Shown piece by piece: positions 5,022 through 8,447 of a stretch of 64,000 nt of DNA. Numbering within the stretch: the first letter of the stretch is position 1; the number at the start of each line of letters is the position of its first letter. The notes below the pieces were generated by a model that was not told the origin of the DNA, searched no databases, and saw only the letters and a program-made list of their open reading frames with translations. The position numbers and the translations under genes are program-made. Source of the stretch: Synoicihabitans lomoniglobus. GTDB taxonomy: Bacteria > Verrucomicrobiota > Verrucomicrobiia > Opitutales > Opitutaceae. The stretch covers positions 1,359,501 to 1,423,500 of the forward strand of contig NZ_CP119075.1 of assembly GCF_029023725.1 (NCBI RefSeq), written 5' to 3'.

Positions 5022-5200
5022 GAACGGGCGGGGTAAACAGCGGGGACGCGGCGGAACCTTGCCCCTAACCCCGAAGGATAGGCCAGCCCTTCACGACGTC
5101 ACGAAGACCGATGCTAAAACTGTAGGGCAAGGGCGTCGCCGGAGTTGAATGGAAATCCGGTTTGCCAGCGCCGCCTGGCTCGGGCCATGTTTCTCGTTCC

Positions 5201-6448
5201 ATGGCCACCTCCGTCGATCCATCCGTTCCCTCCAGCACTGACCGTTTTGCCCAGCCCGATGCGGCGGGTCATTTCGGACCTTATGGTGGCGTGTATGTGC
5301 CTGAGACGCTGATGACGGCGCTGCAGGAACTGGGCGCAGCCTATGAAACCGCCCGCCAAGATCCGGCGTTTGTGGAGGAATTGCGGCATCACTTGAAGGA
5401 GTTCGCGGGACGCCCCACCGAGCTCTATTTTGCCGAGCGTCTCACCGCGCATTGTGGCGGTGCCAAGATTTACCTGAAGCGGGAGGACCTGCTGCACACC
5501 GGGGCGCACAAGATCAACAATGCCATTGGCCAGGCGATCCTCGCCAAACGCATGGGCAAAAAACGCATCATTGCCGAGACCGGCGCCGGCCAACACGGGG
5601 TGGCGACAGCCGCGGTGTGCGCGAAGTTTGGACTGTCGTGCCGGGTTTACATGGGGGCGGTCGACATGGAGCGACAGGCCTTGAACGTGTTTCGCATGCG
5701 TCTCATGGGCGCCGAAGTGATCGGCGTGGAAGCGGGCCAGAAAACGCTCAAGGAAGCGATCAACGAAGCCATGCGCGACTGGGTGACCAATGTGCGCGAG
5801 ACGCACTACATTCTCGGCTCTGCGCTCGGCTCGCATCCGTATCCCATGATGGTGCGTGATTTCCACCGCGTGATCGGGCTGGAAACGAAGGATCAGATCA
5901 TGGCCGCGGAAGGTCGTCTCCCCGACGAGATGATCGCGTGTGTCGGTGGTGGCTCGAACGCCATTGGCTTCTTCTTTGAGTTTTTGGATGACAAAGCGGT
6001 GCGCCTCGTCGGGGTCGAAGCGGGCGGCCGCGGCATCACGCGCGGCGAACACGCGGCGCGTTTCGAGGGAGGTAAACTGGGCGTCCTCCAAGGCTGCAAG
6101 ACCTACATTCTCCAAGATTCGGACGGACAGATCGAGCTGACGCATTCGGTGAGTGCCGGACTCGATTACGCGGCGATCGGTCCCGAGCACGCGTATTATC
6201 GGGACCAAAAGCGCATTGATTTCGCGTATGCCTGTGACGACGAAGTCATGGAAGTCTTCCAACTGGTATCCAAGCTCGAAGGCATCATCCCGGCGCTAGA
6301 GTCGACGCACGCCCTGGTGCACGGCCTCAAGCGTGCGAAAGAAATGGGCCCGGACGAGATCCTGATCATCAACCTCAGCGGCCGCGGCGATAAGGATGTC
6401 AGTCAAGTCCAGCAGATGCTGGACTTGAAAGAGCCAAGTAGCAGGTAA
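5201..6448 (+). CDS. trpB: Tryptophan synthase beta chain
   Basis: PLP enzyme condensing indole with L-serine to make L-tryptophan, normally as an alpha2-beta2 complex with TrpA. Taking the ATG at 5201 gives 415 residues; an upstream in-frame TTG (5162) would add a non-conserved 13-residue leader. The PLP lysine is Lys104 in [16 protein letters not shown], and the phosphate-binding GGGSNAIG loop is present. The family C-terminal motif GRGDKD is followed by a short tail ending LKEPSSR. That tail and the TAA stop lie inside the left inverted repeat of the next gene (6435-6459), so the repeat appears to have replaced the original gene end. No trpA or other trp gene is adjacent. Confidence 0.97.
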
Positions 6449-6459
6449 CAAGTAGCAAG
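6435..6459. repeat. Left inverted repeat flanking the four-helix-bundle gene
   Basis: A 25-bp sequence built from CAAGTAGCAGGTAACAAG plus GTAGCAAG. It matches the reverse complement of 6830-6854 at 22 of 25 positions, and all three differences are transitions. As RNA, 24 of 25 positions could pair (22 Watson-Crick and two G-U). It contains the trpB stop codon and ends directly at the ATG of the four-helix-bundle gene. Confidence 0.8.
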
Positions 6460-6825
6460 ATGGCTGACTCCCCGGAGAACTTGGCTGAACGCACCTATCG
6501 ATTCGCCCGGGATGTGCGTCGCATTGTAAACCTGATGCCATCCTCAACGGCAACGCGGGAGGACATTAAGCAGGTCGTGCGTTCGTCGGGATCGGTGGCG
6601 GCAAATTATCTGGAGGCGCAAGAAGGGCTGAGTCGGAACGACTTTTTCTACCGTATAAAAGTATGCCGTAAAGAGGCTCGCGAATCTCAACTCTGGCTGA
6701 AACTTCTGGCGGAGGATTCCGATCCTTCCACCAGGCCGGAAATAGCGCACCTGATGGATGAAGCCAACCAACTCACGCGCATTTTTGCCTCCATTGCCCA
6801 TAAGCAGGACGATTCCGATGCTTGA
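6460..6825 (+). CDS. Four-helix-bundle protein (S23/IVP family)
   Basis: A 121-residue all-helical protein. It resembles the family encoded by 23S rRNA intervening sequences and related to Avd of diversity-generating retroelements. Recognisable features are the N-terminal YRFARDVRRIVNLMP, the VRSSGSVAANYLEAQEGLS motif, FFYRIKVCRKEARES and a C-terminal helix ending in a charged tail. The molecular role of free-standing members is not established; binding of structured nucleic acid is a reasonable guess. It sits alone between trpB and yicC. Imperfect 25-bp inverted repeats abut its start and lie just after its stop (6830-6854), so gene plus repeats look like a small mobile or inserted cassette. 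No good ribosome-binding site exists other than the repeat itself. Confidence 0.85.
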   Translation: MADSPENLAERTYRFARDVRRIVNLMPSSTATREDIKQVVRSSGSVAANYLEAQEGLSRNDFFYRIKVCRKEARESQLWLKLLAEDSDPSTRPEIAHLMDEANQLTRIFASIAHKQDDSDA

Positions 6826-6829
6826 TCTG

Positions 6830-6860
6830 CTTGTTACTTGTCACCTGTTACTTGTTACTT
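6830..6860. repeat. Right inverted repeat of the four-helix-bundle cassette
   Basis: Positions 6830-6854 are the imperfect inverse of 6435-6459. The following CTTGTTACTT adds another half-unit, so the block reads as tandem TTACTTGT(T/C)AC words. It ends 7 nt before the yicC ATG at 6868, so it forms the whole leader of yicC. Confidence 0.8.
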
Positions 6861-6867
6861 CCTCCCT

Positions 6868-7722
6868 ATGAAGAGTATGACTGGCTTTGGACGGGCCTCC
6901 GTTCCCTTGGGTGATGCGACCGTGGTCGTGCAGGTGAACTCCGTGAATCGGAAGTCGCTGGATCTGTCCATGCGCTTGCCCGACGTGTGGGCATCGTTGG
7001 AGCCCAGCATTGCGGAGGCCGTGCGCGAAGTCGCGTCGCGGGGCAAGGTGCACCTCCAGGTGGGCCTCGAAGCGGCCAGCGGCGACGAAGCCAAGGTCGG
7101 CGCGGCGTTGGACCGACTCCAAAGCATTGCCGACGCCAACGGGATATCATTCCAACCCGATGCCCGCCTGCTGTGGGAAATAGCCAATGACCGGCGAGCC
7201 ACGGCCGAACCCGAATTGGACGAAGCCGTGGAGGTCGCGGTCCTCGAAGCGGCGGAGGAAGCGTTGCGCTCGTTTGCCGCCATGCGCGCTCGCGAAGGTG
7301 AAGCCTTGCTGATCGATTTCCTCACCCGGCTCGATGTGCTGAAGCGCAATGTCGCGGCGGTAGCCGAACGGGCTCCACACGTGCCGGTCCTCTATCGAGA
7401 CGTATTGTTCAAACGGTTACGTGACGCCGATCTGGACCTCGATGTCTCCGATGAACGCGTCCTCAAGGAAGTCGCCTTATTCGCCGATCGTTGCGACATC
7501 ACGGAAGAAATCACGCGATTGAAGAGCCACCTGCAACAACTCGAAACGCTGTTGCGCACCGAAGGTGAAATCGGCCGCAAGGGCGAATTTATCCTCCAGG
7601 AAGTCGGCCGCGAAATTCACACCATCGGCAGTAAGGCCAATGATCTCGAAATCTCGAAAAACGTCATCGAACTGAAGAATGAGCTCGAACGCATTCGCGA
7701 GCAAATGGCCAACGTCGAGTGA
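6868..7722 (+). CDS. yicC: YicC/YloC family endoribonuclease
   Basis: A 284-residue cytoplasmic protein of the YicC family, a stress-linked endoribonuclease implicated in RNA turnover. The family hallmark opens the protein (MKSMTGFGRASV), which fixes the start at ATG 6868. An upstream in-frame TTG lies inside the repeat and adds only repeat-encoded residues. The C-terminal DUF1732 signature is present: DERVLKEVALFADRCDITEEITRLKSH followed by GRKGEFILQEVGREIHTIGSKAND. Length is normal. Its leader is the right repeat of the four-helix-bundle cassette, and its stop lies within a 13-bp hairpin. Confidence 0.95.
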   Translation: MKSMTGFGRASVPLGDATVVVQVNSVNRKSLDLSMRLPDVWASLEPSIAEAVREVASRGKVHLQVGLEAASGDEAKVGAALDRLQSIADANGISFQPDARLLWEIANDRRATAEPELDEAVEVAVLEAAEEALRSFAAMRAREGEALLIDFLTRLDVLKRNVAAVAERAPHVPVLYRDVLFKRLRDADLDLDVSDERVLKEVALFADRCDITEEITRLKSHLQQLETLLRTEGEIGRKGEFILQEVGREIHTIGSKANDLEISKNVIELKNELERIREQMANVE

Positions 7723-7745
7723 AGTGAAAGCGCTTCACTCGACGT
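7712..7745 (+). terminator. Hairpin overlapping the yicC stop
   Basis: ACGTCGAGTGAAG (7712-7724) is perfectly complementary to 7733-7745 with an 8-nt loop. The yicC TGA is within the left arm. There is no U-run after it, since the next bases are AACAAGTAAC. It is therefore either a factor-assisted terminator or a 3'-protecting hairpin rather than a classic intrinsic terminator. Confidence 0.5.
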
Positions 7746-7837
7746 AACAAGTAACAAGAACCAAGTAGCGGGATTCCCTACGAGTAGCCCGCTTGGCGGC
7801 GCGCAGCGGTGGTCAGAAATCCTGTTACTTGTTACTT
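7744..7837. repeat. Short inverted-repeat element between yicC and lspA
   Basis: GTAACAAGTAACAAG at 7744-7758 is matched by its inverse at 7822-7837; 13 bp (7744-7756 with 7823-7835) are perfect. The words are those of the repeats around the four-helix-bundle gene, but the 66 bp inside have no gene. They instead fold as a smaller hairpin (CCAAG..GCGGG at 7761-7772 with CCCGCTTGG at 7788-7796). The right arm holds the lspA stop codon (TAA, complement of 7825-7827). It looks like a non-coding relative of the cassette. Confidence 0.65.
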
Positions 7838-8409
7838 TCCTGCTCCGGCGGATGCCGGAGCGAGTGAATGAGGTAGATGCCGACGCCGATGCAGATGCCG
7901 GAATCGGCGACGTTGAAGGTTGGATACACGTAGCTGCCGAAGTGAAAGTCGAGAAAGTCGACCACGTGGCCGTAGGCAACGCGGTCGATGAGGTTACCGA
8001 CAATGCCGCCGCAGAGCAGTCCGAAGCTGAGCTGCACCATGCGATCGCGCAGGCCGAGGGCGCGGCGCCAAAAATAAATCGCCGCCAGAGTGCTGCCCGC
8101 CAGCAAGGCCAAGAGGGTGCTGCGGCCGGTGAACAGGCTCCACGCCGCGCCGGTATTGCCGACATGGACGAGATAAAAGAACCCGTCTATAATGGTGATG
8201 GCACCGCGTTCCGGTCCGTAGGTGCCGAGCGGCATGCGTTCGACAATCCAAAGTTTGGTGAGCTGATCGAGCACCAGCACCACAATGGCCAAAACCCACA
8301 GTAGCCGGTAGGCACCCAGGCGTTGACCCACGCCGAGCGTGGTCGGTGCCGGGGTATCGGCAGCGACCGCTTCGGGATCAGGCGCGGGGACGCGAGGCGA
8401 TGAGGTCAT
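7825..8409 (-). CDS. lspA: Lipoprotein signal peptidase (signal peptidase II)
   Basis: Inner-membrane aspartic protease that removes signal peptides from diacylated prolipoproteins. Four membrane segments are evident. The catalytic aspartates lie in GNLIDRVAYGHVVDF and FNVADSGICIG (Asp142 and Asp169 counting from ATG 8409). The N-terminal 35 residues are a Pro/Ala-rich cytoplasmic extension. GTG 8421 is an alternative start adding four residues. The last residues (QESNK) and the stop are encoded by the right arm of the 7744-7837 repeat. It is the last gene of the ileS - DksA-like - lspA operon, 38 bp after its neighbour from this start. Confidence 0.96.
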   Translation of the reverse strand: MTSSPRVPAPDPEAVAADTPAPTTLGVGQRLGAYRLLWVLAIVVLVLDQLTKLWIVERMPLGTYGPERGAITIIDGFFYLVHVGNTGAAWSLFTGRSTLLALLAGSTLAAIYFWRRALGLRDRMVQLSFGLLCGGIVGNLIDRVAYGHVVDFLDFHFGSYVYPTFNVADSGICIGVGIYLIHSLRHPPEQESNK

Positions 8410-8447
8410 GATCGATTCCACGGTCAGCGGTCGACCGCGGGAGTCGT

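What the first reader, a model, noticed from the sequence alone, without database searches (positions are those of the whole stretch)
6435..6860. Four-helix-bundle gene enclosed by 25-bp inverted repeats, like a free-standing 23S-type intervening sequence
Seen: the gene is bounded by inverted repeats matching at 22 of 25 positions. As RNA 24 of 25 would pair, looping out the whole gene. The repeats abut trpB and yicC and supply the trpB stop. Known: the same protein family is encoded in 23S rRNA intervening sequences, which also form a long terminal stem. Inferred: the protein and the stem may work together, as a mobile cassette or as a protein bound to its own RNA stem.
Basis: partly seen in the sequence, partly recalled or inferred. 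Interest (0 to 1): 0.68.

Follow-up and report, generated by a model that had tools for sequence, protein, structure and literature searches.

The report
Mobile gene boxed by heptamer repeats
A small four-helix-bundle gene in this bacterium is boxed by mirror-image arrays of a 7-letter DNA repeat; relatives in many bacterial phyla carry similarly boxed genes, with the 7-letter word tending to follow the protein lineage, which ties an orphan protein family to orphan intergenic repeats and suggests an unrecognised kind of mobile element.

Summary
The arms are inverted arrays of a 7-nt unit (here AAGTNNC). Inverted arrays flank PF05635/TIGR02436 genes in 26/30, 24/26, 71/77 and 32/40 tested copies, against 0-5 per set in inverted comparison at shifted positions. 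The heptamer 'dialect' follows protein lineage rather than host genome (Mantel r=0.54, p<=0.0002), in about half of pairs even where flanks are unrelated, so gene and arms travel together. Copies sit mostly in sense between co-directional genes (71/83): trpB-yicC, gyrB-gyrA, pheS-pheT. Of 24 relatives with trpB before yicC, 9 are occupied, 11 tight, 2 keep apparent arm remnants. Gene-less hairpins of matching dialect are dispersed, one at window 7744-7835, though some genomes have arrays without the gene. A published 23S rRNA intervening sequence also has heptamers before its ORF. Best reading: an IVS-like mobile cassette whose protein recognises its own arms and sustains gene-less satellites, resembling REPIN/RAYT without a transposase. 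Recognition and movement are inferred. Ten text searches listed no paper making this link.

The parts
5162..6448 (+). trpB; its last codons and TAA stop lie inside the left arm
   Evidence: ORF list; tblastn against relatives places its end at the junction
6435..6459 (+). left arm: tandem heptamers of dialect AAGTNNC, abutting the ATG at 6460
6460..6825 (+). four-helix-bundle gene, PF05635 / TIGR02436, 121 aa
   Evidence: AF2 model pLDDT 91.2; PDB relatives 2rld and 2gsc, weaker Avd 4dwl/8ub7
6830..6858 (-). right arm: the same heptamers inverted (25-nt paired part 6830-6854)
   Evidence: period-7 array 6830-6860
6868..7722 (+). yicC, downstream neighbour, co-directional
   Evidence: used as query
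7744..7765 (+). left arm of a gene-less heptamer hairpin just after yicC, same dialect as the gene-bearing element
   Evidence: relatives compared
7821..7835 (-). right arm of the gene-less hairpin; overlaps the end of lspA (7825-8421, minus) and contributes its stop codon

Best explanation
The feature is one copy of a small mobile element: two inverted arrays of a lineage-specific heptamer enclosing a PF05635 four-helix-bundle gene. Shown: the architecture, its recurrence in most tested family members, linked inheritance of arms and gene, presence and absence at one site, placement mostly in sense between operon genes, and dispersed gene-less arrays and hairpins of the same dialects. Inferred: (1) the protein, whose relatives form rings, binds its own heptamer dialect, as an RNA stem or as folded single-stranded DNA; (2) binding lets the cassette and gene-less satellites spread, with cutting and joining done by another enzyme; (3) in the transcript the arms form a stem that RNase III can cut, as in 23S IVSs, so the insert is tolerated between cistrons.
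For: Inverted score >=17 at the gene in 26/30, 24/26, 71/77 and 32/40 copies, against 0-5 per set for inverted comparison at shifted positions in the same loci and 1-5 per set for direct orientation at the gene. Period 7 best in 75 of 87 loci (8 in 7, 6 in 4, 5 in 1). Arm similarity between different genomes 0.452 for proteins >=60% identical (124 pairs), within a genome 0.047 for proteins <40% identical (94 pairs); Mantel r 0.54, p<=0.0002. Of 72 pairs >=60% identical with no homologous flank found, 47% share the dialect; one lineage sits at gyrB-gyrA, pheS-pheT and elsewhere. trpB-yicC: 9 occupied, 11 with gaps of -1 to 58 bp, 2 with apparent arm remnants, 2 of about 100 bp, 6 of 30 loci without trpB. 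Both neighbours co-directional in 71/83. Dialect arrays in 12/12 carriers and 10/45 non-carriers of the GTAGCGA lineage; AAGTNNC 3-55 hits in 6 carriers, non-zero in 12/51 others. yicC-lspA hairpins of G000 and G002 each match the dialect of their own trpB-yicC gene. A 23S IVS has heptamers before its ORF.
Against: No enzyme is encoded and no target-site duplication was defined. G002, G011 and G030 have 41, 36 and 37 GTAGCGA-type hits without the cognate gene at >=68% identity. Hairpin loops are unrelated in sequence, so gene-less copies are not plain copies of one unit. Not every copy has clear arms: in the complete genomes 2 of 3 copies of G000 and 4 of the 7 G010 copies examined score >=17, and of the nine occupied trpB-yicC sites G001 (16), G007 (12) and G023 (8) do not. 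Own-genome dialect match at junction hairpins is only an average effect (0.50 against 0.36, p=0.004 with two hairpins picked by eye; 0.46 against 0.37, p=0.018 without them), with misses in G007, G008, G010, G023, G024. Dialect following protein could be linkage alone. The window protein is acidic (pI 5.7) although its relatives are basic (median 9.0). Carrier/non-carrier and dialect comparisons are not corrected for phylogeny; all six window-type carriers are one genus.
Confidence: 0.55

Rival explanations
1. Post-transcriptional regulator: the protein binds heptamer stems in mRNA, controls its own transcript, and the dispersed arrays at gene edges are its targets; mobility is incidental.
For: Sense orientation inside operons (71/83); intergenic arrays close to a gene edge (medians 13-14 nt in G010, 10 nt for 9 of 10 in G011); gene-dialect matching; a published suggestion that other intergenic heptamers bind a post-transcriptional regulator (PMC4679880, abstract and passages).
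Against: No shared class of target genes was looked for; junctions differ between close relatives and arrays persist without a cognate gene (G011, G002, G030), odd for a conserved regulon.
Confidence: 0.22
2. Passive intercistronic IVS: a selfish cassette tolerated because RNase III removes the stem; the protein has no role in spread, and arms follow the protein by linkage only.
For: Same layout as a 23S IVS; the authors of PMC4990558 think the IVS protein is probably not made in that host; linkage alone can give.
Against: Few listed copies have internal stops (5 rows in the capped list, 4 in that) and 13 columns are invariant in 34 sequences; some unlinked gene-less hairpins carry the resident dialect, which linkage cannot give.
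Confidence: 0.13
3. Landing pad: heptamer palindromes are an independent repeat and the four-helix gene inserts into them.
For: Array hits outnumber genes in several genomes.
Against: Within one genome different proteins have different dialects, and similar proteins share a dialect across genomes.
Confidence: 0.06
4. REPIN-like element moved by a Y1 (RAYT-type) transposase, the four-helix gene being an accessory.
For: Y1_Tnp found in 35 of 37 genomes with PF05635 and 8 of 20 without.
Against: Within the family Y1_Tnp is about as common without PF05635 (5 of 6) as with it (29 of 31); G024 and G029 have PF05635 elements but no Y1_Tnp hit. Presence was judged by one Pfam model only.
Confidence: 0.1

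Closest known systems
23S rRNA intervening sequence (IVS) with S23p ORF, e.g. the 428-nt element in helix 45 (PMC4990558)
   Same: Same protein family in the loop, long imperfect terminal stem, ORF in sense with the host transcript, tandem heptamers (three copies, two in some strains, plus a degenerate one) directly before the start codon, similar size
   Different: Here between protein genes, not in rRNA; RNase III cutting untested; several copies per genome; gene-less satellites and lineage-specific dialects are not mentioned in the passages and Discussion that I read
REPIN / RAYT (PMC3116915, passages)
   Same: A gene flanked by cognate inverted repeats plus dispersed gene-less inverted pairs in extragenic space; repeat type goes with protein lineage
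   Different: Protein is a four-helix bundle, not a Y1 transposase; repeats are arrays of 7-mers; loops unrelated; many arrays unpaired
Intergenic heptamer repeats (TAACTGA repeats in Beggiatoaceae, PMC4679880, abstract and passages)
   Same: Tandem 7-nt units close to gene edges
   Different: There 169 direct sets and one inverted set with no reported partner gene; 'four-helix', '23S' and 'intervening' do not occur in that text
DGR accessory protein Avd (4dwl, 8ub7)
   Same: Similar fold (TM about 0.7, Foldseek E only 0.07)
   Different: No reverse transcriptase in the element; several carriers have no RVT_1 hit
MITEs / insertion sequences
   Same: Terminal inverted repeats, small gene-less derivatives
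   Different: No transposase, no defined target duplication, ends are repeat arrays that differ between lineages

Membership tests
PF05635 / TIGR02436 (S23p, 23S rRNA IVP) | Profile match over curated cut-off | tested here: met
PF05635 / TIGR02436 (S23p, 23S rRNA IVP) | Four-helix-bundle fold like 2gsc/2rld | tested here: met
   AF2 four helices, pLDDT 91.2; Foldseek 2rld E 2.9e-5, 2gsc E 1.4e-3
PF05635 / TIGR02436 (S23p, 23S rRNA IVP) | Pentameric ring | not tested
   stated for the Xanthomonas protein in a passage of PMC4990558; oligomer not predicted here
23S rRNA intervening sequence | Located inside a 23S rRNA gene | tested here: not met
   lies between trpB and yicC
23S rRNA intervening sequence | Terminal inverted repeats forming a long stem around the ORF | tested here: met
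23S rRNA intervening sequence | Cut out by RNase III | not testable with these tools
   needs RNA
REPIN / RAYT | Y1 tyrosine transposase encoded next to the repeats | tested here: not met
   the only Pfam match of the enclosed protein over cut-off is PF05635
REPIN / RAYT | Dispersed inverted pairs of the cognate repeat | tested here: met
   but many arrays are unpaired (10 pairs and 21 unpaired arrays in the G010 sample, 1 and 16 in G011)
DGR | Reverse transcriptase with template and variable repeats | tested here: not met
   no RT between the arms; the one RVT_1 hit of G000 is at C1:1073401, outside the window; template/variable repeats were not searched for
Insertion sequence / MITE | Target-site duplication | tested here: inconclusive
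   occupied and empty trpB-yicC junctions are too diverged to define ends to the base

The most novel reading that the evidence does not exclude
A widespread class of bacterial mobile element without its own nuclease: a ring-forming four-helix-bundle protein reads arrays of its own 7-nt word, moves or copies a cassette and a population of gene-less hairpins into operon junctions across phyla, and protein and word co-diversify; the 23S rRNA intervening sequences are the members that landed in rRNA.
Probability: 0.4. Interest if true: 0.92.

Novelty: new variant of a known kind. Interest (0 to 1): 0.8.

Why it matters
It joins two orphans: a protein family annotated as 'four helix bundle protein' or '23S rRNA-intervening sequence protein', and intergenic heptamer repeats. 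It gives the family a concrete ligand to test (its own arms, with other dialects as built-in negative controls), offers an origin for 23S rRNA intervening sequences, whose origin and function the paper read here calls unclear, and points to a mobile element that places itself between genes such as gyrB-gyrA and pheS-pheT without encoding a recognisable nuclease.

Tried and rejected
Chance: rejected at family level (shifted and direct controls), though the window pair alone reaches only 3/2000. Direct-orientation comparison at shifted positions gave up to 6 of 28, 3 of 25, 4 of 59 and 4 of 40, somewhat more than inverted shifted in the first set. Random pairing of upstream and downstream flanks as a null was poor because loci share dialects. 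A selected perfect stem is only partly supported: arms of one locus fit each other better than arms of other loci of the same dialect (27.8 against 25.2, and 27.1 against 25.1), but most of the match is the shared dialect, and by eye the variable NN positions do not pair register by register. Retro-mechanism: no RVT_1 hit in carriers G001, G003, G004, G005, G007, G008, G010, G024, G036. Phage or plasmid carriage: 0 of 50,697 phage and 5 of 72,556 plasmid records for one subfamily query. Longest-ORF orientation calls were unreliable in G+C-rich DNA and were replaced by a codon-position caller. Period-7 arrays stand out in G010 (25 against 0-5 at other periods), weakly in G011 (10 against 0-8) and not in G000 (2 against 0-5).

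Choices and dropped rows: the threshold 17 was chosen after the first 30 loci and kept. Loci under 17 were dropped before the dialect tests (55 of 64 kept; 32 of the 40 added, 87). One search tested 26 of 29 loci, 77 of 80, 69 of 80; one search had no called neighbour for 4 of 87. In one search, 30 of the 34 yicC hits were available as loci. In one search I looked at 16 of those 30. The stretches were partly placed on PF05635 copies. The carrier cut of 68% identity was mine; G009, G028 and G052 have copies of 58-62%. In one search the two yicC-lspA junctions were picked because hairpins were seen there; one search repeats the test without them. In one search the arm similarity of pairs of 50-70% identity (0.167) is little above that of control flank sequence (0.136); the clear gap is at 70% and more (0.626 against 0.158).

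Full report
WHAT IS THERE. The window carries trpB, then a 121-codon gene, then yicC. The gene is boxed by a 25-nt inverted repeat (6435-6459 / 6830-6854; 22 of 25 identical, 24 of 25 paired as RNA) and the left arm supplies the trpB stop. The arms are tandem heptamers: GTARCAAGTARCAAG with up to 2 mismatches has 9 hits in 64 kb against 0.08 expected, all around this gene and in a second inverted pair at 7744-7835 between yicC and lspA that encloses no gene. The protein is PF05635 / TIGR02436, a four-helix bundle by AlphaFold2 (pLDDT 91.2); its closest solved relatives are 2rld and 2gsc, then, more weakly, the DGR protein Avd.

THE RULE BEHIND IT. PF05635 occurs in 37 of 57 relatives, up to 15 copies each. 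I scored local matches between the 200 bp before and the reverse complement of the 200 bp after each gene. Score 17 or more: 26 of 30 (best copy in each of 30 genomes; shifted inverted 0-2 of 28, direct at the gene 2 of 30); 24 of 26 copies of the window's own subfamily across the phylum (shifted 0-3 of 23-25, direct 2 of 26); 71 of 77 copies from public contigs whose titles name Verrucomicrobia, Planctomycetes, Patescibacteria, Deltaproteobacteria, Nitrospirae, Omnitrophota and others (shifted 0-3 of 57-73, direct 5 of 77); 32 of 40 further copies that I picked from the list (shifted 5 of 40, direct 1 of 40). The 80 loci are the best of at least 564 and related to each other, so these are not independent trials. 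In the two complete genomes looked at more fully the rate is lower: 2 of 3 copies of G000 and 4 of 7 of G010.

DIALECTS. The best period is 7 in 75 of 87 loci, 8 in 7, 6 in 4, 5 in 1, but the word differs: AAGTNNC here, elsewhere GTAGCGA, GTTGAAA, AGTCAGG, CGAAATC and others. Arm similarity (5-mer cosine) is 0.452 between different genomes when proteins are 60% or more identical (124 pairs) and 0.047 within a genome when proteins are under 40% identical (94 pairs); Mantel r 0.54, p<=0.0002 on different-genome pairs. Three same-genome pairs of 60% or more scored only 0.019. Reverse-orientation comparison stays at 0.017-0.033. In the cross-phylum set both arms use the same variant, CGAA or CTAA, in 63 of 69 loci.

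IT TRAVELS AS A UNIT. Of 127 pairs with 60% or more identity, 72 had no homologous flanking ORF in the 1-3 kb available; 47% of those still share the dialect, against 78% of the 55 syntenic pairs. The GTAGCGA lineage sits between gyrB and gyrA in five genomes, between pheS and pheT in four, and elsewhere in one (gene names recognised by eye from the protein ends, no family search). Among 30 yicC loci, 24 show trpB upstream: 9 with the gene, 11 with gaps of -1 to 58 bp, 2 of about 100 bp, and 2 (G008, G016) of 168-179 bp with heptamer-like remnants, read by eye, but no gene. Arm scores at the nine occupied sites reach 17 in six; G001 (16), G007 (12, array interrupted) and G023 (8) fall short. 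At another junction (L003) G000 has a gene-less hairpin while G001 and G005 carry a gene-bearing element between the same two genes (67-81% identical flanking proteins).

WHERE IT SITS. Both neighbours are co-directional with the gene in 71 of 83 loci (5 +/-, 6 -/-, 1 -/+; 4 more had no called neighbour); adjacent genes in 1.18 Mb sampled from three of these genomes are co-directional in 541 of 848 pairs. So it lies mostly in sense within operons, as expected of an element that lives on read-through transcription or is judged at RNA level.

GENE-LESS ARRAYS. In samples of 383-400 kb, period-7 arrays number 25 in G010 (other periods 0-5), 10 in G011 (0-8) and 2 in G000 (0-5). Many are unpaired: 10 pairs and 21 single arrays in G010, 1 and 16 in G011. 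In 30 loci with the AAGTNNC pattern I found 10 inverted pairs, one holding the gene; six have loops of 13-32 bp, and no two loops are similar. The AAGTNNC pattern gives 3, 6, 47, 55, 36 and 3 hits in the six genomes with the window-type gene and is non-zero in 12 of 51 others; the GTAGCGA pattern is present in 12 of 12 carriers and 10 of 45 non-carriers, within the family 10 of 25. Against this, G002, G011 and G030 have 41, 36 and 37 hits without the gene. At yicC-lspA, G000 and G002 have gene-less hairpins of two different dialects, each that of its own trpB-yicC gene (by eye). At rpoA-rplQ heptamer hairpins or single arms of different dialects are seen by eye in several genomes, though only G000, G002 and G010 reach an inverted score of 14-15 there. 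Own-genome genes match junction sequence better than other genomes' on average (0.50 against 0.36, p=0.004, 14 junctions; 0.46 against 0.37, p=0.018, with the 12 rpoA-rplQ junctions alone), but own genome is best only in G000 and G002, and G007, G008, G010, G023 and G024 fail.

HOW IT MOST LIKELY WORKS. Shown: architecture, linked inheritance, presence and absence, orientation, arrays of matching dialect. Inferred: the protein, whose Xanthomonas relative is a homopentamer (PMC4990558 passage), reads the repeated word along each arm; this would explain a tandem array, a fixed 7-nt step, a word that changes with the protein, and satellites that follow the resident protein. The transcript would fold into a stem that RNase III can cut, so that an insertion between cistrons is tolerated, as in 23S IVSs. 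Who cuts and joins DNA is unknown: reverse transcriptase hits are absent from several carriers, and Y1 transposases are common but not found in two genomes that carry the gene.

KNOWN OR NEW. The 23S IVS of one well-studied bacterium has the S23p ORF in a loop closed by a 28-bp stem, with three tandem heptamers (two in some strains) plus a degenerate one just before the start codon and an RNase III site at the first repeat (PMC4990558, passages and Discussion read). So the window element is laid out like an IVS and its protein belongs to that family, but it is not a 23S IVS because it is not in rRNA. REPIN/RAYT (PMC3116915, passages) is the nearest analogue of gene plus satellites, without membership because the transposase is missing. 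Intergenic heptamers were described without a partner protein (PMC4679880, abstract and passages). My ten text searches listed no paper that by title or abstract start links free-standing PF05635 genes to inverted heptamer arrays; several of these lists were cut (for example 20 of 4,279), and most subscription papers and preprints are outside that library. Recalled, from no call: that such repeats and such genes co-occur in other phyla had seemed familiar to me, but I can name no source.

Noticed in passing
window 7744-7835: Gene-less inverted heptamer pair between the convergent genes yicC and lspA; the right arm contributes the lspA stop codon.
   Followed up: yes
L076 (G007), left arm at trpB-yicC: The heptamer array is interrupted by a short GC-rich palindrome (CCGCCTTCGCC...GGCTACGGCGG), apparently another repeat nested in the arm.
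   Followed up: no
L304, L313, L336: One protein lineage (EKLxxYQxA) has a roughly 6-nt unit (TTATCT-like) with the pyrimidine-rich strand pointing inward, opposite in polarity to most others.
   Followed up: no
G012: The reversed control pattern GAACNNTGAACNNTGAAC has 33 hits in G012 (6 in G008), so this is probably another heptamer dialect.
   Followed up: no
L101-L180: In many loci of the cross-phylum group the inner end of the left arm runs over the start codon, so the first residues of the protein are arm-encoded (by eye).
   Followed up: partly
G000:C1:2622989-2625510: Three Y1_Tnp-like genes in tandem within 2.6 kb.
   Followed up: no
G011: A genome without any detected PF05635 gene still has period-7 arrays and 36 hits of the GTAGCGA dialect, possibly leftovers after gene loss.
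   Followed up: partly
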